From the NCBI GenBank assembly GCA_025927685.1, contig JAICKX010000007.1:1-57313 (forward strand): DNA of 57,313 nt. The letters run 5' to 3'. This DNA is from Thermoleophilia bacterium (lineage in GTDB: Bacteria > Actinomycetota > Thermoleophilia > Gaiellales > JAICJC01). Positions 32,966 to 56,766 of this stretch are shown piece by piece; position 1 is the first letter of the stretch; each line of letters opens with the position of its first letter. Made by a program: the position numbers and the translations under genes. The notes beneath the pieces were generated by a model, which saw nothing but the letters and a program-made list of their open reading frames with translations, made no database searches and was not told the origin of the DNA.

Positions 32966-34167
32966 GAGGCGTCCTCCTGCGGTCGGGGGACGGCCGCCGG
33001 TTCCTCGTCGCGCAGCTCATGGACTCGATGGCGGGCGGCCTGAGCCTCGTCGTGCTGCCGTGGATGGTGCTCGACGCGGGTGGCTCGCGCTCCCTGGCCG
33101 GAGCCGCCTTCCTGCTCGGCACCATCCCGTACCTCGTGCTCGGGCTGCACGCAGGCGAGATCGGCGACCGCCGCCGGCGCCAGCCGATCATGGTGCTCTC
33201 CGCGATCCTTCAGGGCGTGGCCGCCGCGGCGCTCCCGCTGGTGGTGGCGCTCGGGCCGGCCGCGCGCGATCTCCCGATGGCCCTCATCTTCGTCGCCGGC
33301 ATGGGCGTCACCGCGGGTCGCGTGTTCGTCGACGCGGCCGCCTTCGGCGCGGTCGCCCGGCTGGTCGGGGACGCCCACTTCGTCGAGGGCCAGGCGGCGC
33401 TCTCGCTCGTCTGGTCGCTCGGGTTTCTGATCGGCCCGGCGCTCGGCGGCGGCCTGATCGGCCTGGTGGGCGCGGTGGAGGCCCTGTGGGTGGAGGCGGC
33501 GGGCTTCGCGCTGGCGGCCGTCCTGCTCGCGTCCATCCGGCTCGATCTGGGCCCCGAGCACGACGGCCGTCCCCAGCGGGCCCGGGTGCTTTCCGGTCTC
33601 GAGATGGTGGCGCGCGACCGTGCCCTGCGCCGGCTCACGTCGGTGAGCATGGCGTGGAACCTGACCGTGAACATCTTCTACGCGCTGATCGTGGTGTTCG
33701 CCAGGACCGAGCTCCACGCCGGCGGCCCCGCGGCGGGGAAGATGCTCGCGATCGGCGGCGCGGCCGGCCTCGCCGGCGGAGCGGTCGCCCCGCTCGCGCG
33801 CGACCGGCTCGGGCCGACGGGGGCGCTCCGGATCGCGATCGTCGGGTCGGCCGGAGCGGGGGTGGCGCTGGCGCTCGCGCCCGGCCTCGGCGCGGCGACC
33901 GCCGCCTACGCCGGCCTCGAGGCGACCGGCCTCTGCTTCATCACGATCGTCATCGGCGAGCGTCAGACCCGCGCTGCGCCGGCCCAGCAGGCCCGGGTCG
34001 GCATCACGGGGCGCATGGCGGCGCTCTTCGCCTCCTCGATCGGCGCCGTCGTGGCGAGCGCCATGGTCGCCTTTCTCTCAGCCGGCGACGTGTTCGCCGT
34101 CGCAGCGGCCGGAACCGTGTGCGTGGCGGCCGTCTCCCTGCCGCTGCTCAGGCTCGAGGAGGGCTGA
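32962..34167 (+). CDS. MFS transporter
   Basis: 12-TM-like; HAGEIGDRRRRQPIMVLSAI loop; GTGA overlap with upstream gene. Confidence 0.85.
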   Translation: MRGVLLRSGDGRRFLVAQLMDSMAGGLSLVVLPWMVLDAGGSRSLAGAAFLLGTIPYLVLGLHAGEIGDRRRRQPIMVLSAILQGVAAAALPLVVALGPAARDLPMALIFVAGMGVTAGRVFVDAAAFGAVARLVGDAHFVEGQAALSLVWSLGFLIGPALGGGLIGLVGAVEALWVEAAGFALAAVLLASIRLDLGPEHDGRPQRARVLSGLEMVARDRALRRLTSVSMAWNLTVNIFYALIVVFARTELHAGGPAAGKMLAIGGAAGLAGGAVAPLARDRLGPTGALRIAIVGSAGAGVALALAPGLGAATAAYAGLEATGLCFITIVIGERQTRAAPAQQARVGITGRMAALFASSIGAVVASAMVAFLSAGDVFAVAAAGTVCVAAVSLPLLRLEEG

Positions 34168-34783
34168 GCTCGCCCGCCGCCGGCGCGCCCACGTGCGTGG
34201 CCCTGAGGGCCCGGCCGAAGTAGCGGAAGACGTGGATCTGGAACACCACCATCCACACCGCCGCGACGACCAGGTGCGTGTGCGCGATCACCGACCCGTG
34301 CGCCGGGTCCCAGATCAAGGGCAGGCCCGACAAGAGGAGCGGCACCGATGACGCCAGGAGGAGCAGCGACACGCCCTCCGTGAAGGCCTTCCGCCATCGC
34401 AGCCCCTCGCGGATGCGGCCCGGCTCGAGCGCCCGCAGCTTGAGCAGGACGAGCACGAGGCCCGCCGTCGAGGTGAGGGTGTGCGTCCACGACATCGCCG
34501 CCGACGGGCGGTCGTCGCGCAGGTCGACGGTGTAGACGAGAAGCCCGGTGACAAGGCCCGTGATGAGGAGCGGGAGCGCGGCTGTGGAGAGCCGTGCGGT
34601 GGCCGTCGCCACGGGCCGTGGCGGCACCCGTTCGGCCTCCTTCCGGCGGTGCCACTCGGCCAGCTCCTCGTCGTTCAGGTGCGCCGGCGGCAGCCGCGCG
34701 GCGTAGAGGCCGAACCGCGCCAGGAACCCCAGCCCGACAACCGCGGGCAGGAGGTGCGGGATGTGCAGGAGCACGAACTGCAC
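34148..34783 (-). CDS. Multi-TM protein with intramembrane histidines (possible b-type heme protein)
   Basis: SWTHTLTSTAGLVLVLLKL; VIAHTHLVVAAVWMVVFQIHVFRYF; divergent from coxB. Confidence 0.65.
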   Translation of the reverse strand: MQFVLLHIPHLLPAVVGLGFLARFGLYAARLPPAHLNDEELAEWHRRKEAERVPPRPVATATARLSTAALPLLITGLVTGLLVYTVDLRDDRPSAAMSWTHTLTSTAGLVLVLLKLRALEPGRIREGLRWRKAFTEGVSLLLLASSVPLLLSGLPLIWDPAHGSVIAHTHLVVAAVWMVVFQIHVFRYFGRALRATHVGAPAAGELSPPRA

Positions 34784-34807
34784 CGGTCCAGCGTAGCTGC
34801 ACGACCG

Positions 34808-34836
34808 TTGCCCCTGTCCCGCGACCCGCATAAGAT
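34808..34836 (+). promoter_or_regulatory. Promoter TTGCCC-N17-TAAGAT for coxB
   Basis: -35 34808-34813, -10 34831-34836; GTG start 8 nt after the -10. Confidence 0.55.
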
Positions 34837-34844
34837 GCCGCCCG

Positions 34845-35870
34845 GTGTCACCGTTTTTCAGAGTCGGGTTCGTCGCGCTGGTCCTCGGCGCGCTGGGGTC
34901 GCTCGCCATCTGGCTCACGCCGTCGTGGTTCCCGACGTCGGCCGCGGTCCAGGCCGACCGCCAGGACGAGCTCTACTTCTGGCTGATGGTGATGAGCGCG
35001 TTCATCTTCGCCATCGTCATCGTGTTCCTCGTCTACTCGATGGTGAAGTTCCGGGCCAGGCCCGGCGACGACTCCGACGGCGAGCCGATCCACGGCCACG
35101 CCGGGCTCGAGATCATCTGGACGGTCCTCCCGATCGTGATCGTGCTCGGCTTCGCCATCTACGGCGCCGCGGCGCTGGGCCGAAACGAGGCGCTCGCGAA
35201 GGACCGCCTGATCGTCGACGTGCAGGCCCAGCAGTTCGCGTGGACGTTCACCTACCCGAGCTACGGCAAGCTGAAGACGGGGATCCTCGCCCTCCCGGTG
35301 GGGCGCCAGGTCGAGTTCCACATCACGGCCGTCGAGCACGACGTGCTGCACTCGTTCTACATCCCGGCGTTCCGGCTGAAGCAGGACGCCGTGCCGGGGG
35401 TGCCGCAGAAGCTCATCGCGACGCCCACGAAGCTCGGCACGTACATGGTGACGTGCGCGGAGCTGTGCGGCATCGGCCACAGCCAGATGCGCACCGTCCT
35501 GCACGTCCTCTCGCCGAAGGACTTCACGGCCTGGATCGCCGACCAGAAGAAGGCGGCGTCCCAGCCGGCGGCCGGCGGGAGCACCGACCCGGCCGCGATC
35601 GTCTCGTCGGACTGCGCGAGCTGTCACACGTTCCAGCCCGCGAACGCGACGGGAACCGTGGGCCCGGATCTCGACAACCTGGCGAGCGATGCGTCGAAGT
35701 ACGGCGGCGGACAGTCGCCCGAGGACTATGTGAAGGAGTCGATCGTCGATCCGGACAAGGTCGTCGTCCCCGGCTTCCCGAAGGGGGTCATGCCGACCAC
35801 CTTCGGGACGAGCCTCTCGGCCGACCAGATCGACGCGCTTGTGCAGTATCTGTTGAAAGGCGGGAGCTGA
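34845..35870 (+). CDS. ctaC: Cytochrome c oxidase subunit II with fused cytochrome c domain (caa3-type)
   Basis: CuA motif CAELCGIGHSQM; C-terminal CASCH heme c site. Confidence 0.95.
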   Translation: MSPFFRVGFVALVLGALGSLAIWLTPSWFPTSAAVQADRQDELYFWLMVMSAFIFAIVIVFLVYSMVKFRARPGDDSDGEPIHGHAGLEIIWTVLPIVIVLGFAIYGAAALGRNEALAKDRLIVDVQAQQFAWTFTYPSYGKLKTGILALPVGRQVEFHITAVEHDVLHSFYIPAFRLKQDAVPGVPQKLIATPTKLGTYMVTCAELCGIGHSQMRTVLHVLSPKDFTAWIADQKKAASQPAAGGSTDPAAIVSSDCASCHTFQPANATGTVGPDLDNLASDASKYGGGQSPEDYVKESIVDPDKVVVPGFPKGVMPTTFGTSLSADQIDALVQYLLKGGS

Positions 35871-35871
35871 A

Positions 35872-38283
35872 GTGGTTGCACACGCCCATGAGATGACGGG
35901 ACCTGTCCATCACGAGCACGGCGGCGGCGGGCCGCGACGCAGCGTGTGGCTGCGCGGAAGCTGGGTGCGCGCGCTCTGGGTCGCGGCGTTCATGGGGGTC
36001 GCGGCCGCACTGATCGTCATGGGCATCCGCGACCTTTCGGGCCGGACGGCCTACAGCGCGGGCGTCGTCCAGACCTTCATCATGCTGTTCGCCGGCATCG
36101 GCTTCACGATCGGCATCGGCTGCTGGGACTACTGGTGGGGCTACCTGATCGGGCGGCCGACCCCGGCCCACGAGGACCACTCCAACCACGGCGCCTACTC
36201 GTGGAAGGACTACTTCAAGGTCAACACCGACCACAAGGTGATCGGCGTCCAGTACCTCGTGACCACGTTCATCTTCTTCATGATCGGCGGGATGCTCGCC
36301 GAGGGCATGCGGGCGGAGCTCGCGACGCCGGGCCAGCAGTACTTCTCGCCGGGCACGTTCAACGGCCTCTTCTCGGTGCACGCCGCCCTCATGATCTTCC
36401 TGTTCGTGATCCCGGCGTTCGCGGGCCTCGGCAACTTCGTCATCCCCATCATGATCGGGGCGCAGGACATGGCGTTCCCACGCCTGAACGCGCTCAGCTT
36501 CTGGATGCTGCCGGTGGCCGGCATGTGCATGGTCTCGTCGTTCCTCGTCACGCCATTCGACGCCGGCTGGACGAACTACGTGCCGCTCGCGGTGCACGGC
36601 CCGGACGGGCAGACGATGTGGGTGATGGGCGTGCAGTTCGCCGGCGCGTCCTCCATCGCCACGGCGGTCAACTTCCTGGTCACGATCGTGACGATGCGGG
36701 CGCCGGGCATGACGTTCTGGCGGATGCCGCTGCTGGTGTGGGCGAACCTGGCCACGTCCACGCTGGTCGTCCTCGGAACGCCGTTCATCGCCGGCGCCCA
36801 GTTCCAGGTGCTGTTCGACCGGATCATGCACACGCACTTCTTCGATCCGACGGGCGGCGGCGACGTGATCGCCTATCAGCACATCTTCTGGTTCTACTCC
36901 CACCCGGCGGTGTACATCATGATGCTGCCCGGCTTCGGGATCATCTCCGAGGTCATCGCGATCCACTCGCGTAAGCCGATCTTCGGCTACAAGCTGATCG
37001 CGATCTCGACGGTCGCCATCGGCGTCCTCGGGTTCACGGTGTGGGCCCACCACATGTTCGTGTCCGGCATGGCGCCGTGGCTGCGGATCCCGATGATGTT
37101 CACGACGATGGCGATCGCCGTCCCGACCGGGATCAAGATGTTCTCGTGGCTCGCGACCATGTGGCGCGGCGTCATCCACCTGACGACGCCGATGCTCTTC
37201 GCCTGCGGCTTCCTGGCGACGTTCGTGGTCGGCGGGCTGTCAGGCATCTTCCTGGCCGTCATCCCGGTCGACATCGCGACATCCGACACGTACTTCGTGG
37301 TCGCGCACATCCACTACGTCCTCTTCGGCGGGTCCGTGTTCACGATCTACGCCGGCATCTACCACTGGTTCCCGAAGATGACGGGCAAGATGTACGACGA
37401 GGGCCTGGGCAAGCTCCACTTCTGGCTCACGTTCGTGGCGTTCAACGCCACGTTCATGCCGATGCACTGGCTCGGCCTCCAGGGCATGCAGCGCCGGATC
37501 GCCGACTACCCGTCGCAGTTCGGGACGCTCAACTTCTTCATCTCGATCATGGCGTTCATCCTCGGCGCGTCGACGCTGGTCTTCCTCTACAACATGGCTC
37601 ACTCGTGGTGGCGCGGAGAGACCGCGCCGGCCAACCCGTGGCGGGCGCTCACGCTCGAGTGGCAGGTCACCTCGCCTCCGCCGATCTTCAACTTCGACGA
37701 GCCGCCGCAGATCGTGGGCAGCCCGTACGCCTACGGCGTCCCCGGCGCGCGCCACGCCGTCGTCACCGTTCACGCGCCGCCGCAGCCCGAGGAGGTGCCG
37801 GTGCCCGTCGCTCTGGCCACCGCCACCCGTGAGGAGAGAGAGGCGATCATGAGCGCGCTCAAGCACATCCTGGTCGTGGCGAACCAGACCGTGTCCGCCG
37901 ACCGGCTGATCGCGGCCGTGCGCAATCGGGCGACCACGGATCCGGTGCGGGTGACGGTGATCTGCCCGCAGAACGACCCGACCGATGCGTGGGTCGTGAA
38001 CGAGGCGGACGTGCGGGCGGCGACGCAGGCCCGGCTCGACGGCGCGCTGACGGCGCTTCGGCGGGCGGGGATCCAGGCGACGGGCTACGTGGTCGAGCGC
38101 GACCCCTACACGGCGGTGATGGACGTGGTCGAGGAGGACCCGCCGTCGGAGATCGTCGTCTCGACGCTCCCGCAGACGCGGTCCGGGTGGCTGCGGCGTG
38201 ACCTGATCGAGCGGCTGCGCGACGGGACGAAGCTGCCGGTCGAGCACGTGGTGTCCGACGCTCCGGAGATGCCCCGCGCATGA
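35872..38283 (+). CDS. ctaD: Cytochrome c oxidase subunit I with N-terminal 2-TM extension and C-terminal UspA-like domain
   Basis: HHMFVSGM, WFYSHPAVYIMMLPGFG, VVAHIHYVLFGG; C-terminal ~145 aa MSALKHILVVANQTVSADRLI...LPVEHVV Usp-like. Confidence 0.93.
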   Translation: MVAHAHEMTGPVHHEHGGGGPRRSVWLRGSWVRALWVAAFMGVAAALIVMGIRDLSGRTAYSAGVVQTFIMLFAGIGFTIGIGCWDYWWGYLIGRPTPAHEDHSNHGAYSWKDYFKVNTDHKVIGVQYLVTTFIFFMIGGMLAEGMRAELATPGQQYFSPGTFNGLFSVHAALMIFLFVIPAFAGLGNFVIPIMIGAQDMAFPRLNALSFWMLPVAGMCMVSSFLVTPFDAGWTNYVPLAVHGPDGQTMWVMGVQFAGASSIATAVNFLVTIVTMRAPGMTFWRMPLLVWANLATSTLVVLGTPFIAGAQFQVLFDRIMHTHFFDPTGGGDVIAYQHIFWFYSHPAVYIMMLPGFGIISEVIAIHSRKPIFGYKLIAISTVAIGVLGFTVWAHHMFVSGMAPWLRIPMMFTTMAIAVPTGIKMFSWLATMWRGVIHLTTPMLFACGFLATFVVGGLSGIFLAVIPVDIATSDTYFVVAHIHYVLFGGSVFTIYAGIYHWFPKMTGKMYDEGLGKLHFWLTFVAFNATFMPMHWLGLQGMQRRIADYPSQFGTLNFFISIMAFILGASTLVFLYNMAHSWWRGETAPANPWRALTLEWQVTSPPPIFNFDEPPQIVGSPYAYGVPGARHAVVTVHAPPQPEEVPVPVALATATREEREAIMSALKHILVVANQTVSADRLIAAVRNRATTDPVRVTVICPQNDPTDAWVVNEADVRAATQARLDGALTALRRAGIQATGYVVERDPYTAVMDVVEEDPPSEIVVSTLPQTRSGWLRRDLIERLRDGTKLPVEHVVSDAPEMPRA

Positions 38284-38894
38284 GCGCCCACGTCGCCACC
38301 GCCGACGGCCACCACCACGCCGACGGTGCGCCGGTCTCCGCCTATCACGAGAGCCTGCTCCGGTCGCCCGTCTTCCTGGGCATGATCATGTTCCTCGGCT
38401 CGGAGATCATGCTCTTCGGGTCGTTCTTCACGATCTTCTTCTACATGCGGTTCACGCACAGCCCGTGGCCGCCGGAGGGCGTCGAGATCCCGAAGGAGGC
38501 CACCGGGATCAACACGGCCATCCTGATCTCGTCGTCGTTCACGATGCACTGGGCGCTCGTGTCGATCAAGCGCGATCGCCGGTTCGGGCTCGTCGTCGGG
38601 CTCTTCCTGACGCTTGCGATGGGGCTCACGTTCCTGAGCCTCCAGGTGCACGAGTACCTGAACCTGGGCTTCACCCCCTCGAACAACGGCTTCGCCTCCG
38701 GGTTCTTCTCGCTGACCGGACTGCACGGCATGCACGTCTTCGTCGGCGCGACCCTGCTCTCCATCGCCTTCCTCCGCGCCTGCCGGGGCCACTACTCCGG
38801 CGCCGAGCACATCGGCCTCGAGGTGACGGGCCTCTACTGGCACTTCGTCGACGTCGTGTGGATCCTGCTCTACACGGTCGTCTACCTGCTTTAA
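38280..38894 (+). CDS. ctaE: Cytochrome c oxidase subunit III
   Basis: GSEIMLFGSFFTIFFYMRF...TGLHGMHVFVGATLL...GLYWHFVDVVWILLYTVVYLL; ATGA overlap with ctaD. Confidence 0.95.
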   Translation: MSAHVATADGHHHADGAPVSAYHESLLRSPVFLGMIMFLGSEIMLFGSFFTIFFYMRFTHSPWPPEGVEIPKEATGINTAILISSSFTMHWALVSIKRDRRFGLVVGLFLTLAMGLTFLSLQVHEYLNLGFTPSNNGFASGFFSLTGLHGMHVFVGATLLSIAFLRACRGHYSGAEHIGLEVTGLYWHFVDVVWILLYTVVYLL

Positions 38895-39320: not shown

Positions 39321-40817
39321 CTACTGAGGCCCTGCGGACGGCGCGTCCGCGGCGTAGCGCACGATCATCTGGTCGGTCATCCACTCGACCGGCGCCCGGT
39401 CGTCGGTCAGCGGATCGCCCGACGGCGGCACCTGGCGGAGCTGCTGCGCCAGGCCCGCGGCCGGCTGAAGGCCGGCCGGCGCGCCGTCCAGGCGGGCCCG
39501 GAGCTCGGCGGCGGTCGTCGGCGACGTGAACCCGGCGACGATGTCGTTGAACCCGCTCACGCGCCACTCGAACACCGATGCGAACCTGGTCGCCATGGTG
39601 CCCGCGATCGCGTCCGGGAGGCTCGTGTCGCCGGGGATCCGGCCCACGTTCGCCATCACCATCCCGCCCGGCTCGAGCCGGCCGCGCGCCAGGCCCCAGA
39701 ACTCCTGTGTCGTCAGGTAGAACGGGATGTACGGCTGGCGGAAGGCGTCGAGGAAGACGGCGTCGTAGCGGGTGTGGTGCTGCTCGAGGTAGACGCGCCC
39801 GTCGGCCGTCGCCACCCGCACGCGCGGGTTCGAGGCCAGCCCGAAGTAGCGGCGGCCGACATCGGTCACGAGCGGGTCGAGCTCGATCCCGAGCACGTTC
39901 ACGTCCGGCCAGTACGTGCCGTAGGCCCGCCCGACCGTGCCACCGGCGTAGCCGATCATGCTGAGGCTGCGAAACCCGGGCCCGTGCAGGAGCGGCGCGA
40001 GCAGGAACTGATCCCAGTAGCCGCCGGTCAGCACCTGATTCGGGCGGTAGATCGAGTGGTCGGCCCAGCCCTCGTTCAGGTGCAGGACACGTCCGCCGCC
40101 GGGCAGCGCCTCCACCTGCACGAACTGGTAGCCCGACTCGCCCTCGTAGATCACGTGCGATCCGGGCTTCACGAGGCCCGGCGGGACGAGTGCCACCGCG
40201 CCGATCAGCGCCGGCACCGCCAGGTAGCGCCGCCCGAGGACGGGTGAGGCGGCGAGGGCCAGGAGGCAGGCGGTCGCGAGCATCGTCCGCCGTGTCCCGA
40301 TCGCCGGGATGAGCACCGCAACGGGCACGAAGGTGCCGATGATCGAGCCGGCCGTGGAGAGGGCGTACATGCGGCCGGCCACCGTGCCCGCCTCCTCGAC
40401 CGTGGTCACGCCCAGGCGCACCGCAAACGGCGAGGCCATCCCGAGCAGCGTGATCGGGGCCGAGAAGAGCAACATCACGGCGAAGAACGACCCCAGGAAC
40501 GCCCCGACCGAGGCACCGGCGAACGCGTCGACCGCGGCGCTCAGGAACGGCTCGGCGACGAACGGCAGCACCGCCACGCAGGCGGCGGCAGACAGCATCA
40601 GCCAGCACAGGAACCGCAAGGTGGGGTGGCGGTCGGCGAGGCGCCCTCCGACGAAGTAGCCGACCGACAGGTAGATCAGGATCAGGCCGATGATGTTGGC
40701 CCAGATCAGGATCGAGGCGCCGAAGAACGGGGCAAGCAGGCGCGACGCGCACATCTCGGTCGACATCGTCGTGGCCCCGGCGATGAACACGAGCGGCGGC
40801 GGCACGCGGCGGTCCAC
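39321..40817 (-). CDS. Membrane-fused spermidine synthase-like protein
   Basis: N-terminal multi-TM (SRLLAPFFGASILIWANIIGLILIYLSVGYFVGGRLADR) plus Rossmann SpeE-like domain (YDAVFLDAFRQPYIPFYLTTQEFW). Confidence 0.88.
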   Translation of the reverse strand: MDRRVPPPLVFIAGATTMSTEMCASRLLAPFFGASILIWANIIGLILIYLSVGYFVGGRLADRHPTLRFLCWLMLSAAACVAVLPFVAEPFLSAAVDAFAGASVGAFLGSFFAVMLLFSAPITLLGMASPFAVRLGVTTVEEAGTVAGRMYALSTAGSIIGTFVPVAVLIPAIGTRRTMLATACLLALAASPVLGRRYLAVPALIGAVALVPPGLVKPGSHVIYEGESGYQFVQVEALPGGGRVLHLNEGWADHSIYRPNQVLTGGYWDQFLLAPLLHGPGFRSLSMIGYAGGTVGRAYGTYWPDVNVLGIELDPLVTDVGRRYFGLASNPRVRVATADGRVYLEQHHTRYDAVFLDAFRQPYIPFYLTTQEFWGLARGRLEPGGMVMANVGRIPGDTSLPDAIAGTMATRFASVFEWRVSGFNDIVAGFTSPTTAAELRARLDGAPAGLQPAAGLAQQLRQVPPSGDPLTDDRAPVEWMTDQMIVRYAADAPSAGPQ

Positions 40818-52605: not shown

Positions 52606-53343
52606 GTGACCGTCGCTCACCGACTGCGCACGCTCGTTGCCGCCGTCACGGCCGTCGTCGCACCCCTCATGCTGGCCCCCGCCGCGCTCGCCGACACGGC
52701 CACGCCGGAGAACCCGGCCGGGCCGGCGTCGCACGCGATCGACGACATCTACCGCGCGGTCATCGGGACCACGATGGTGATCTTCATCCTCGTCGGCGGC
52801 TGGCTCGTTTACTCCGCGATCCGCTTCCGCGCCCGCCCAGGACGCCCCATCGACCCGCCGCAGATGCACGGCTCGAGCCGGCTCGAGTGGGGCTGGACGA
52901 TCGTGCCCGTGCTGATCCTGGTCGGCCTGGCCGGGTACACGTTCCACAAGCTGCCCGACGTCAAGAACGCGCCGTCCGACTCGATGGTCGTGAGCGTGCT
53001 GGCCCAGCAGTTCCAGTTCTCCTACACCTACGGCGGGAACTCGGGCGCCGCCCAGGGCAAGACGCCTTCGACCGCGACGACGCTGGTCGTCCCCGAGAAC
53101 ACGCCGGTGAAGCTCGAGGTGCATGCCAAGGACGTCGCCCACGACTGGTGGGTGCCGGCGCTCGGGCCGAAAGTCGACGCCATCCCCGGCCAGACCACCA
53201 CGACGTGGTTCCGGGCCGACCACACCGGCACCTTCCACGGCCAGTGCTCCGAGTTCTGCGGCGTCGGCCACGCGACGATGGCGATCACGGTGAAGGTCGT
53301 ATCGGCCTCCGACTGGCGGACCTACGCGGGAGGGCTGAAGTGA
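52606..53343 (+). CDS. Cytochrome c oxidase subunit II (second locus, no heme c domain)
   Basis: CuA motif CSEFCGVGHATM; LAQQFQFSYTY. Confidence 0.93.
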   Translation: MTVAHRLRTLVAAVTAVVAPLMLAPAALADTATPENPAGPASHAIDDIYRAVIGTTMVIFILVGGWLVYSAIRFRARPGRPIDPPQMHGSSRLEWGWTIVPVLILVGLAGYTFHKLPDVKNAPSDSMVVSVLAQQFQFSYTYGGNSGAAQGKTPSTATTLVVPENTPVKLEVHAKDVAHDWWVPALGPKVDAIPGQTTTTWFRADHTGTFHGQCSEFCGVGHATMAITVKVVSASDWRTYAGGLK

Positions 53344-53350
53344 GGCGCGC

Positions 53351-54985
53351 ATGGTGACCGAGGCCGTCGCCACGCCCCCTGCGACCGGGCACGCGCCGGG
53401 GCGGACCGGCTTCTGGTCGTGGGTGACGACCGTCGATCACAAGCGGATCGGGATCCTCTACCTGATCACGACGCTCTTCTTCTTCGTCTCGGGCGGCCTC
53501 ATGGCGCTGGCCATGCGGATCCAGCTCGAGCACTCCTCGAACAACGTGATCTCGGCCGACTCGTACGACCGGATCTTCACGATGCACGGGACGACCATGG
53601 TGTTCCTGTTCACCGTCCCGGTGATGGCCGCGTTCGGGAACTACGTGGTGCCGCTCATGATCGGCGCGCGCGACATGGCCTTCCCGCGCCTGAACGCGGC
53701 CTCGCTCTGGCTTCTCCTCTTCGGCGGTATCGTCATGTACTCCGGGTTCGTGTGGGGCGGAGGAGCGGCGGATGCCGGCTGGACGGGGTACCCGCCGCTC
53801 TCGGAGCAGTCGCCCGGCCACGGGATCGACCTGTGGATCGTCGGCCTGCACATCGTCACGATCAGCTCGGTGATCGGGGCGATCAACTTCATCTGCACGA
53901 TCCACAACATGCGCGCACCCGGCATGCGCCTCTCCCGGATACCGCTCTTCGTCTGGACCATCGACGTGTACGCGTTCATGATCGTCCTGGCGCTGCCGCT
54001 GCTCTCCGGCGCGCTCACGATGCTGCTGCTCGACCGCAACTACGGGACCAGCTTCTACGCGGCCGGGCACTACGGCCCGATCCTCTATCAGCACCTCTTC
54101 TGGGCCTTCGGGCACCCGGAGGTGTACATCGTGGCGCTGCCGGGCTTCGGGATGATCTCGGAGATCGTGCCGGTCTTCTCGCGCAAGCCGCTCTTCGGCT
54201 ACCGCGCCCTCGTCTACGCCACGGTCGCGATCGGTTTCCTGGCCTTCCTCGTGTGGGGCCACCACATGTTCGCGGTCGGCATGTCGACCCCGCTCCAGGT
54301 CTGGTTCATGCTGACGTCGATGGCGATCGCCGTCCCGACGGGGATCAAGATCTTCAACTGGGTGGGGACGATGTGGATGGGCCAGATCCGGTTCGAGCCG
54401 CCCATGCTCTTCGCGACCGGGTTCATCCTCACATTCCTGATCGGCGGCCTCTCGGGCATCGCGGTGGCGACGTTCCCCGTCGACCTGTACGTCACCGACA
54501 GCTACTTCGTGGTCGCCCACTTCCACTACGTGATGGGCAGCATCCCGGTGTTCGCGGTGCTCGGCGGGCTGCACTACTGGTACCCGAAGATGACCGGCCG
54601 GATGCTCGACCGCGCGCTCGGGATCCGCAGCTTCTGGGTGCTCTTCGTCGGCTTCAACCTCACGTTCTTCCCGATGCACGCGATGGGCCTCTCGGGAATG
54701 CCGCGCCGCGTCGCGACCTACACGAACACCGACTGGAACGTCTACAACCAGATCGCGACGCTGGGCGCGTTCGTGCTCGGCGTCGGCGTCCTCATGGTGC
54801 TGATCAACTGCCTGCGCTCCCTCCGGTACGGGCGGATCGCTCCGGCCGACCCGTGGCGCGGAAACACGCTCGAGTGGTACACGTCCTCGCCACCACCCCC
54901 GCACAACTTCGACAGCCTGCCGCCGATCCGGTCTGAGCGGCCGCTCGACGACCTGCGCCGCGAGGCGGCCGCGGCCCGCGCGTGA
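53351..54985 (+). CDS. Cytochrome c oxidase subunit I (second locus)
   Basis: FWAFGHPEVYIVALPGFGMISEI, GHHMFAVGM, VVAHFHYVMG. Confidence 0.95.
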   Translation: MVTEAVATPPATGHAPGRTGFWSWVTTVDHKRIGILYLITTLFFFVSGGLMALAMRIQLEHSSNNVISADSYDRIFTMHGTTMVFLFTVPVMAAFGNYVVPLMIGARDMAFPRLNAASLWLLLFGGIVMYSGFVWGGGAADAGWTGYPPLSEQSPGHGIDLWIVGLHIVTISSVIGAINFICTIHNMRAPGMRLSRIPLFVWTIDVYAFMIVLALPLLSGALTMLLLDRNYGTSFYAAGHYGPILYQHLFWAFGHPEVYIVALPGFGMISEIVPVFSRKPLFGYRALVYATVAIGFLAFLVWGHHMFAVGMSTPLQVWFMLTSMAIAVPTGIKIFNWVGTMWMGQIRFEPPMLFATGFILTFLIGGLSGIAVATFPVDLYVTDSYFVVAHFHYVMGSIPVFAVLGGLHYWYPKMTGRMLDRALGIRSFWVLFVGFNLTFFPMHAMGLSGMPRRVATYTNTDWNVYNQIATLGAFVLGVGVLMVLINCLRSLRYGRIAPADPWRGNTLEWYTSSPPPPHNFDSLPPIRSERPLDDLRREAAAARA

Positions 54986-56766
54986 CGCCGAAGCGGGTGG
55001 TCACGTTCGCCGCGCTGGTCGCCGCGCTGGCCTGGGCGCTCATGACGGTCGGGGCGTACGTGCGCGTCTCGGACTCCGGCCTCGGCTGCCCGGACTGGCC
55101 GGCCTGCCACGGCCAGCTCGTCGCCGGCGGGCACCACGCCCTGATCGAGCAGGTGCACCGCTGGATCGTGACCGTGCTCTCGGTCGCCCTCGTCGTCCTC
55201 GCGGTGCTGGTCTACCGGATGCGGCAGGGCGAGCGGCGGGTCACGACGGCGATGACGATCACCCTGGCGCTGCTCGGACTCCAGGTCGTCCTGGGCGGTG
55301 TCACGGTGCTGCTCAACAACGTCTCGTGGACGGTGGTGATGCACTACGGCGCCGCGGCGGCGCTCCTGGCCGCCGTGCTCCTGGTCGTCGTGCGACTCGC
55401 GTTTCCGGAGGCGGAGTCGCCTCCGCGCGACGGCTACGTCCGGCTCGTCACGTGGCTCGCGGGCACCACCTTCGGGCTGCTCCTCATGGGGGCGACCGTG
55501 GCCACGACCGACTCGCACGAGTCGTGCGGCAAGAGCTTCCCGCTCTGCAGGGGCGACGTCGTGCCGTCGGCCGACCACCACGCCGTCATCAACATGGCTC
55601 ACCGGGTCTGGGCGGGGCTCGCGCTGCTGCTGGCGCTGTGGGTGTGGCGCCAGACGGGCCGGTGGCGGCGGGGCGTGTGGCAGATCGAGGCGGCGGCGCG
55701 GGGCATGGCGAGCCTCTTCCTGGCGCAGGCCGCGGTCGGTGTCGCGGTCATCGAGGCGGGCGAGAACGACGTGCTCGAGGTGCTGCACTCGTCCCTTGCC
55801 TCCCTGACGTGGCTCGCGGTCGCTACGCTCCTTTGGATGGCACGCACGCTTCCCGTCCCCGAGGTCGTGCAGTCGGGTACGGGGGTGGAGCGCTCGGCGT
55901 GGCGGACGAGCATCGCCGACTACCTGACGCTCGTGAAGCCGCGCATCATGCTGCTCATCCTGATCACGGCCTACGGGGCGATGGCGTTCGCCGCCGACGG
56001 CCCGCCGCGGGCCGGGCTCACCGCCTGGACGCTCCTCGGGCTGGGGCTCTCCTCCGGCGGCGCGAGCGCCATCAACCACTACCTCGACCGCGACATCGAC
56101 GCGCGCATGACGCGCACCGCCGGCCGGCCGGTCCCCACGGGGCGGGTGGCGCCCGAGGCGGCGCTCGGCTTCGGCACCGGGCTCATCATCGCGTCGGTTG
56201 CCGTGCTGGCGCTCAACGTCAACCTGATCTCGGCCGGGCTGGCGCTGGCGGGCGCGTTCACCTACGTGGTCGTCTACACGTACTGGCTGAAGCGGCGCAC
56301 GCCGCTCAACATCGTGATCGGCGGCGCCGCCGGGGCCGTGCCGCCGCTGGTCGGCTGGGCGGCCGTGACCGGTCACGTCGGCCTGCCGGCCGCGTTCATG
56401 TTCGCGATCATCTTCCTCTGGACGCCTCCGCACTTCTGGGCGCTTGCGATCCTGGCCAAGCGCGAGTACGCGAATGCCGGCGTCCCGATGCTCCCGGTCG
56501 TGCGCGGCGACCGCGAGACCGCCCGTCAGATCCTGCTCTACACCCTCCTCCTCGTCGGCATCTCGATCCTGCCGTTCGCCGACCGCACGTTCGGATGGGT
56601 CTACCTGACCGGTGCGGTCGTCCTCGGGGCCGAGTTCGTGCTGCTGGCGGTGCGGCTCCTGCGCGACACCTCACCGCCGGCCGCGCGCCGGCTCTTCCTC
56701 TACTCGCTCGCCTACCTGGCGCTGCTCTTCCTCGTGATCGGGCTCGACCGCGCCCGCTTGTCCTAG
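54982..56766 (+). CDS. Fused heme A synthase (CtaA/COX15) - heme O synthase (CtaB)
   Basis: N-half VRVSDSGLGCPDWPACHG...HRVWAG; C-half YLTLVKPRIMLLILITAYG...NHYLDRDIDARMTRTAGRPVPTG...WTPPHFWALAI. Confidence 0.94.
   Translation: MTPKRVVTFAALVAALAWALMTVGAYVRVSDSGLGCPDWPACHGQLVAGGHHALIEQVHRWIVTVLSVALVVLAVLVYRMRQGERRVTTAMTITLALLGLQVVLGGVTVLLNNVSWTVVMHYGAAAALLAAVLLVVVRLAFPEAESPPRDGYVRLVTWLAGTTFGLLLMGATVATTDSHESCGKSFPLCRGDVVPSADHHAVINMAHRVWAGLALLLALWVWRQTGRWRRGVWQIEAAARGMASLFLAQAAVGVAVIEAGENDVLEVLHSSLASLTWLAVATLLWMARTLPVPEVVQSGTGVERSAWRTSIADYLTLVKPRIMLLILITAYGAMAFAADGPPRAGLTAWTLLGLGLSSGGASAINHYLDRDIDARMTRTAGRPVPTGRVAPEAALGFGTGLIIASVAVLALNVNLISAGLALAGAFTYVVVYTYWLKRRTPLNIVIGGAAGAVPPLVGWAAVTGHVGLPAAFMFAIIFLWTPPHFWALAILAKREYANAGVPMLPVVRGDRETARQILLYTLLLVGISILPFADRTFGWVYLTGAVVLGAEFVLLAVRLLRDTSPPAARRLFLYSLAYLALLFLVIGLDRARLS

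What the first reader, a model, noticed from the sequence alone, without database searches (positions are those of the whole stretch)
35872..38283. COX subunit I fused to a C-terminal UspA-like domain (and an N-terminal 2-TM segment)
The ORF is continuous for 803 aa. The core has all COX I metal-ligand motifs. The last ~145 aa (KHILVVANQTVSADRLI...VTVICP...SEIVVSTLPQTRSGWLRRDLIERLRDGTKLPVEHVV) look like a universal stress protein fold. The first ~110 aa add two TMs and a WWGY segment resembling a COX IV/CtaF-type subunit, which has no separate gene in this locus. A sensory or nucleotide-binding domain attached to a terminal oxidase would be unusual.
Basis: partly seen in the sequence, partly recalled or inferred. 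Interest (0 to 1): 0.75.

Follow-up and report, generated by a model that had tools for sequence, protein, structure and literature searches.

The report
Cytochrome oxidase subunit with Usp-like tail
The main subunit of an oxygen-consuming respiratory enzyme in this actinobacterium carries, in the same protein, a small cytoplasmic domain of the universal-stress-protein fold; most relatives keep the same domain as the very next gene, which suggests an unrecognised accessory or regulatory part of the enzyme.

Summary
Window 35872-38283 (+) is one uninterrupted 803-aa ORF: a conserved N-terminal two-helix hairpin, a complete A2-type (YSHPAVY) caa3 oxidase subunit I, a disordered linker, and a C-terminal universal-stress-protein (Usp)-fold domain (AlphaFold pLDDT 92.6; best PDB match 2IEL, Z 16.5). 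It is not an artefact: three further genomes of the family have it, and a second lineage (f5, near Miltoncostaeales) has COX1-Usp-Usp. Elsewhere in the class, and in one genome outside it, a tandem-Usp gene commonly sits between cox1 and cox3. The Usp domain is under purifying selection but has lost the ATP-binding motif, replaced by a conserved STxPxxxSxWLR signature. In three of four family members a start codon with an SD-like sequence lies at the domain boundary, so a free Usp domain may also be made. Best reading: a cytoplasmic accessory/regulatory module tethered to a terminal oxidase; its function is inferred. The proposed COX IV/CtaF identity of the N-terminus found no support. No report of this architecture was found in the open-access papers searched. 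A new variant of known kinds, widely conserved and directly testable.

The parts
35872..38283 (+). Fused ORF, 803 aa: N-terminal hairpin + COX1 (A2 type) + Usp-fold domain
35872..36207 (+). N-terminal extension (aa 1-112): His-rich start, helices at aa 31-55 and 63-81, then conserved GIGxFDYW..PEDHSxHG segment; present in Thermoleophilia-type homologues, no match in cyanobacterial COX1 rows
36223..37713 (+). COX1 core (aa 118-614), 12 membrane helices, motif FYSHPAVY at aa 341-348 (A2 type)
   Evidence: motif definition PMC8780969
37714..37848 (+). Linker (aa 615-659), low model confidence at aa 624-644, variable between relatives
37831..37851 (+). Possible internal translation start: gaggagagagagg-cgatc-ATG (M660), strongest SD-like pairing among the in-frame start codons of the ORF
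37861..38262 (+). Usp-fold domain (aa 664-797), no ATP-binding motif, STLPQTRSGWLRRD signature at aa 764-777
34845..35870 (+). cox2 with C-terminal cytochrome c domain (caa3 type), directly upstream
38280..38894 (+). cox3, 204 aa, overlaps the stop of the fused gene (ATGA); its COX3 match starts at profile position 64 of 258, so it is the short form

Best explanation
The ORF encodes subunit I of an A2-type caa3 cytochrome c oxidase with a permanently tethered cytoplasmic Usp-fold module. The module is the fused form of a Usp-like protein that relatives encode as a separate gene between cox1 and cox3. It most likely works as an accessory subunit on the cytoplasmic face of the oxidase, where the D and K proton channels open, by protein-protein contact (dimerising or stabilising the complex, or docking a regulator) and not by canonical ATP binding. 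In this family a start codon with a Shine-Dalgarno-like sequence at the domain boundary may also give a free copy of the module. Shown here: fusion, predicted fold, loss of the ATP motif, linkage to the oxidase operon, purifying selection. Inferred: physical role in the complex, regulatory direction, use of the internal start.
For: Single ORF in four genomes of the family and COX1-Usp-Usp in at least 33 of 41 sampled genomes of a second family. A separate tandem-Usp gene lies beside cox1 in 39 of 66 COX1 loci examined, including Solirubrobacteraceae and Thermoleophilaceae loci, and in one genome outside the class (L182). Usp fold. Purifying selection on the Usp codons. Cytoplasmic placement: 14 helices in the model. 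ATP motif replaced by STxPxxxSxWLR. Internal start: SD-like energy -11.9, rank 1 of 63 in this genome; -8.6 in G002 and -11.6 in G004. Precedent: TeaD, a Usp regulatory subunit of a TRAP transporter, and the Usp-like cytoplasmic domain of KCC transporters (PMC8280820); KdpD Usp domain (entry title of 7ji4).
Against: No expression, proteomic or complex data. No ligand or partner is predicted. Eight COX1 loci have no adjacent Usp gene and three have a single separate Usp domain, so the module is not essential for an oxidase of this type. The second Usp domain of the fused f5 proteins is degenerate. The full-length model has a disordered linker, so no contact surface on COX1 is shown.
Confidence: 0.6

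Rival explanations
1. Assembly or insertion factor: the Usp-like module helps fold or insert COX1, or bring COX3 to it, and the fusion only secures one-to-one supply. It has no role in the mature enzyme.
For: Gene order cox1-usp-cox3 with overlapping or adjacent starts; possible internal start giving a free domain.
Against: Permanent fusion in two lineages keeps the module on the mature subunit unless it is cleaved; no cleavage site was sought.
Confidence: 0.2
2. Ligand sensor: the module binds a small molecule without the classical ATP motif (for example a nucleotide second messenger) and gates oxidase activity.
For: Usp domains bind AMP, cAMP or c-di-AMP in solved structures (3tnj, 5ahw, 7ji4). 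TTHA0350 binds two ATP although its second domain has a degenerate motif (PMC3673472).
Against: The G-2X-G-9X-G(S/T) motif is absent in the related domains; Usp structures with a completely degenerated motif were solved without ligand (PMC3673472).
Confidence: 0.15
3. Passive read-through: loss of a stop codon joined two adjacent, functionally separate genes, and the Usp protein has nothing to do with the oxidase.
For: In about 25 genomes a single in-frame stop separates COX1 and Usp; the fused form in this family keeps an SD-like start at the boundary.
Against: The gene sits between cox1 and cox3 across distinct families; fused forms persist across each fused clade of the COX1 tree with purifying selection in this family; the f5 fusions mostly lack a usable internal start.
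Confidence: 0.05

Closest known systems
A2-type heme-copper oxidase subunit I (caa3 type, e.g. Thermus thermophilus caa3, 2yev)
   Same: YSHPXV motif on helix VI (in the window protein), 12-helix core, metal ligands, cox2 partner with cytochrome c domain; model aligns to 2yev chain A (Z 44.5, 519 residues). That Thermus caa3 is A2-type is from general knowledge.
   Different: Extra N-terminal two-helix hairpin and C-terminal Usp-fold domain; subunit III is a separate short protein, not part of a 780-residue chain as in 2yev
TT0030 of Thermus thermophilus (2IEL), a stand-alone Usp-fold protein of unknown function
   Same: Closest solved relative of the Usp domain: 29-30% identity over ~130 aa, Z 16.5, shares the STLPxxxSxWLR motif
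   Different: Stand-alone 138-aa chain; whether its gene lies near an oxidase could not be checked
Usp regulatory subunits or domains of membrane systems: TeaD (3hgm), KdpD Usp domain (7ji4), Usp-like domain of KCC transporters
   Same: Usp-fold cytoplasmic module acting on a membrane system (structural matches; PMC8280820)
   Different: Those bind nucleotides; partners are transporters or a kinase. None is a respiratory oxidase, and the ATP motif is absent here
Tandem-type universal stress proteins (UspE class: Rv2623, TTHA0350)
   Same: Two Usp domains in one chain, as in the separate relatives of this domain
   Different: Those have at least one ATP-binding motif (PMC3673472); the relatives here lack it and lie in a cox operon

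Membership tests
Heme-copper oxidase, A family, COX1 (CtaD) | Full-length match above the curated cut-off of TIGR02891 | tested here: met
   674 bits vs 670.75, residues 118-614
Heme-copper oxidase, A family, COX1 (CtaD) | Invariant heme and CuB histidines and the cross-linked Tyr | tested here: met
   H170, H344, H393, H394, H479, H481, Y348 invariant in 40 rows
A2-type oxidase | YSHPXV on helix VI in place of XGHPEV | tested here: met
   FYSHPAVY at aa 341-348, invariant in alignment A1; definition PMC8780969
A2-type oxidase | Oxygen reductase activity with proton pumping | not testable with these tools
   needs enzyme assay
Universal stress protein superfamily | Usp fold of alternating strands and helices | tested here: met
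   5 strands and 4 main helices, pLDDT 92.6; top matches Usp, MJ0577 Z 13.6, 2IEL Z 16.5
Universal stress protein superfamily | PF00582 at or above its gathering score | tested here: not met
   18.7 bits vs 24; only 10 of 60 relatives match PF00582 at E 0.01 or better
ATP-binding Usp (MJ0577 type) | G-2X-G-9X-G(S/T) motif and beta1 Asp | tested here: not met
   replaced by STLPQTRSGWLRRD and ANQT in the window protein; same pattern in relatives
Usp domain group of 2IEL | STxPxxxSxWLR motif and significant sequence match | tested here: met
   phmmer E 1e-8, profile E 7e-19
COX IV / CtaF (PF12270, PF03626) for the N-terminal extension | Sequence or profile similarity to CtaF | tested here: not met
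   no Pfam/NCBIfam hit; hhalign probability 0.2% against a 15-row CtaF alignment
COX IV / CtaF for the N-terminal extension | Position in the complex equivalent to subunit IV | not tested
   no complex model could be made; the extension was not folded or searched alone

The most novel reading that the evidence does not exclude
A class-wide respiratory oxidase has gained a dedicated cytoplasmic Usp-fold subunit that has been fused to, or split from, COX1 in different lineages, and that controls activity, coupling or oligomerisation of an A2 oxidase in response to cell state, a bacterial counterpart in kind to the regulatory matrix-side subunits of mitochondrial complex IV.
Probability: 0.3. Interest if true: 0.85.

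Novelty: new variant of a known kind. Interest (0 to 1): 0.6.

Why it matters
Bacterial terminal oxidases are usually described as a conserved core with few accessory subunits. A Usp-fold module that recurs beside or inside COX1 across Thermoleophilia would give the poorly understood Usp superfamily a defined partner and would make regulation of a bacterial oxidase by a cytoplasmic domain testable. The natural split and fused forms are ready-made constructs for such tests.

Tried and rejected
Artefact of a missed stop or mis-assembly: rejected, same uninterrupted junction in G002, G003, G004 and in the f5 family. PLDc_2 and Exog_C weak matches to the C-terminus: rejected, the modelled fold and structural matches are Usp. 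Nucleotide binding by the classical motif: not supported on sequence. N-terminal extension as CtaF/COX IV: no support from families or profile comparison; some alignments of the full model to E. coli bo3 and Thermus caa3 chains begin within the extension (aa 28 or 61), too weak to assign. N-terminal hairpin as the two missing first helices of COX3: considered because cox3 here is the short form, but cyanobacterial loci also have short cox3 ORFs without the COX1 extension, so there is no clear complementarity. One origin or two for the fusion: not resolved; fused-single and fused-double forms are each one branch and the base is an open fork. Literature: no hit for a COX1-Usp protein or a usp gene in a cox operon; the library holds open-access papers only. 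Whether 2IEL's gene lies near caa3 in Thermus could not be checked (one search gave no locus).

Full report
Observation. The ORF at 35872-38283 (+) is open for 803 codons and starts with GTG, with a good Shine-Dalgarno-like sequence (energy -11.3), just after the end of the cox2 ORF at 35870. Its stop overlaps the start of cox3 (ATGA). The gene order is cox2 (with a cytochrome c domain) - cox1-usp - cox3.

Core. Residues 118-614 are a complete COX1. It passes the TIGR02891 cut-off, and the predicted structure aligns with the Rhodobacter oxidase at Z 48.8 over 491 residues, 48% identity. Helix VI reads FYSHPAVY, the A2-type motif YSHPXV as defined in PMC8780969. With the cytochrome c domain on COX2 this is an A2-type caa3 oxidase by sequence. 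Ligand histidines, the cross-link tyrosine and candidate D- and K-channel residues (D199, K422) are invariant in 40 homologues; the assignment of these residues to their roles rests on established knowledge of the family. The window also holds a second oxidase with the A1-type motif FGHPEVY (53351-54985), and the genome a third COX1.

C-terminal domain. Sequence similarity to Pfam Usp is sub-threshold. An AlphaFold2 model built on 60 related domains has pLDDT 92.6 and pTM 0.88, with five strands alternating with helices. The best Foldseek match is 2IEL (TT0030 of Thermus thermophilus, E 1e-9), followed by Usp proteins; VIA-align gives 2IEL Z 16.5 and MJ0577 Z 13.6. The sequence relation to 2IEL is significant on its own (E 1e-8, profile E 7e-19). 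ATP-binding Usp proteins carry G-2X-G-9X-G(S/T) and an Asp near beta1 (PMC3673472). Here, and in the consensus of most related domain types, these are replaced by STxPxxxSxWLRxD and ANxT; the second domain of the f5 proteins has neither. The paper notes that degenerate motifs do not strictly exclude ATP (TTHA0350, 3HGM), so absence of nucleotide binding is likely, not shown.

Conservation. Among 61 close relatives, 44 carry related domains. Three other family members (G002, G003, G004) have the same COX1-Usp fusion; the fourth, G001, an 82%-complete assembly, shows only weaker matches. In a class sample of 399 genomes, at least 33 of 41 sampled members of family f5 have an uninterrupted COX1-Usp frame of the COX1-Usp-Usp kind, and in about 25 genomes, mostly of family f10, COX1 and Usp share a frame with a single stop between them (my counts from the printed, truncated rows; the two-domain architecture itself was read in eleven loci). 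Of 66 COX1 loci with the N-terminal extension, 39 have a separate tandem-Usp gene beside cox1, 15 are fused, 3 have a single separate Usp, 8 none and 1 is at a contig edge. One genome outside the class (G561, locus L182) has cox2-cox1-Usp-Usp-cox3 with a separate Usp gene. Many relatives carry a further gene after cox3, a membrane segment plus a Usp domain. The class is named Thermoleophilia from the record titles of the nearest loci; the genome handles themselves are unnamed. The published Gaiella occulta genome lists its oxidase as Gocc_0001, 0002 and 0004 (PMC6741124); a usp gene at the skipped number 0003 would fit but was not checked.

Tree. On a COX1 tree, fused-single and fused-double forms each occupy one branch (SH-aLRT 99 and 96) and the separate forms fall together in a third clade (97), but the base is unresolved. 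The fused-versus-separate label needs only one change, so an ancestral fusion split later, or independent fusions, are both possible. Different linkers (about 46 versus 30 residues between the core end and the Usp domain) and different domain numbers (one versus two) lean towards two events.

Internal start. At the Usp boundary of this genome lies ATG (M660, 37849) with gaggagagagagg upstream. Its SD-like energy of -11.9 is the best of the in-frame start codons of the ORF, comparable with the real cox1 start. G002 has -8.6 (rank 4 of 70) and G004 a TTG at -11.6 (rank 1 of 65) plus an ATG at -8.6; G003 is weaker at -5.2. In f5-type loci, seven of eleven have no comparable start there, while four closely related ones have a GTG at -9.3. 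So this family may make both a fusion and a free domain, whereas most f5-type proteins look like plain fusions. This is a sequence argument only.

Selection. Rough Nei-Gojobori dN/dS on Usp codons is 0.21 (G000-G002), 0.15 (G003-G004) and 0.40 (G000-G003), against 0.09-0.26 for the COX1 core. The domain is constrained, less so than COX1.

N-terminal extension. Two hydrophobic helices (31-55, 63-81) followed by a conserved GIGxFDYW...PEDHSxHG segment occur in the Thermoleophilia-type homologues. No family matches it, and it does not align with CtaF profiles (hhalign probability 0.2%). Neither COX4 family was found in the genome, which is 81.5% complete. The extension was not folded alone, so its identity is open.

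Mechanism. With 14 helices and both ends inside, the Usp domain lies in the cytoplasm, on the side where protons enter the enzyme. Usp modules act on other membrane systems (TeaD, KCC; PMC8280820). The most likely role is an accessory or regulatory subunit acting by protein contact; an assembly role is the main rival. No experiment supports either yet.

Literature. Searches for COX1 with a Usp domain, or a usp gene in a cox operon, gave nothing relevant, within a library of open-access papers only.

Noticed in passing
window 54982-56766 (+): One 594-aa ORF matches both CtaA/COX15 (heme A synthase) and UbiA (CtaB-type); ctaA-ctaB fusions are listed for Deinococcus-Thermus and others in PMC8239418.
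   Followed up: partly
window 52606-54985 (+): A second oxidase (cox2 without cytochrome c domain, cox1 with the A1-type motif FGHPEVY and no Usp tail) in the same window.
   Followed up: partly
L152:2405-2881 (own genome, contig C181): A stand-alone 159-aa-frame Usp-fold paralogue of the fused domain (37% identity), resembling the Usp domain found after cox3 in relatives but without the membrane segment.
   Followed up: partly
L041:8349-9029, L093:8347-9039 and similar loci: In many relatives a further gene follows cox3: a short membrane segment plus a Usp domain of the same group, so some oxidase operons carry three Usp domains.
   Followed up: partly
L196:892-2565, L200:1426-3168: COX1 ORFs of other actinobacteria whose C-terminal ends match the second half of CtaF (57 and 67 bits): possibly a COX1-CtaF fusion.
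   Followed up: no
window 34148-34918 (-): 256-aa ORF divergent from cox2 with hydrophobic segments and no Pfam or NCBIfam match.
   Followed up: no
window 39321-40817 (-): 498-aa ORF with a hydrophobic N-terminal half and only a weak spermine/spermidine synthase match (E 0.0042, below cut-off).
   Followed up: no
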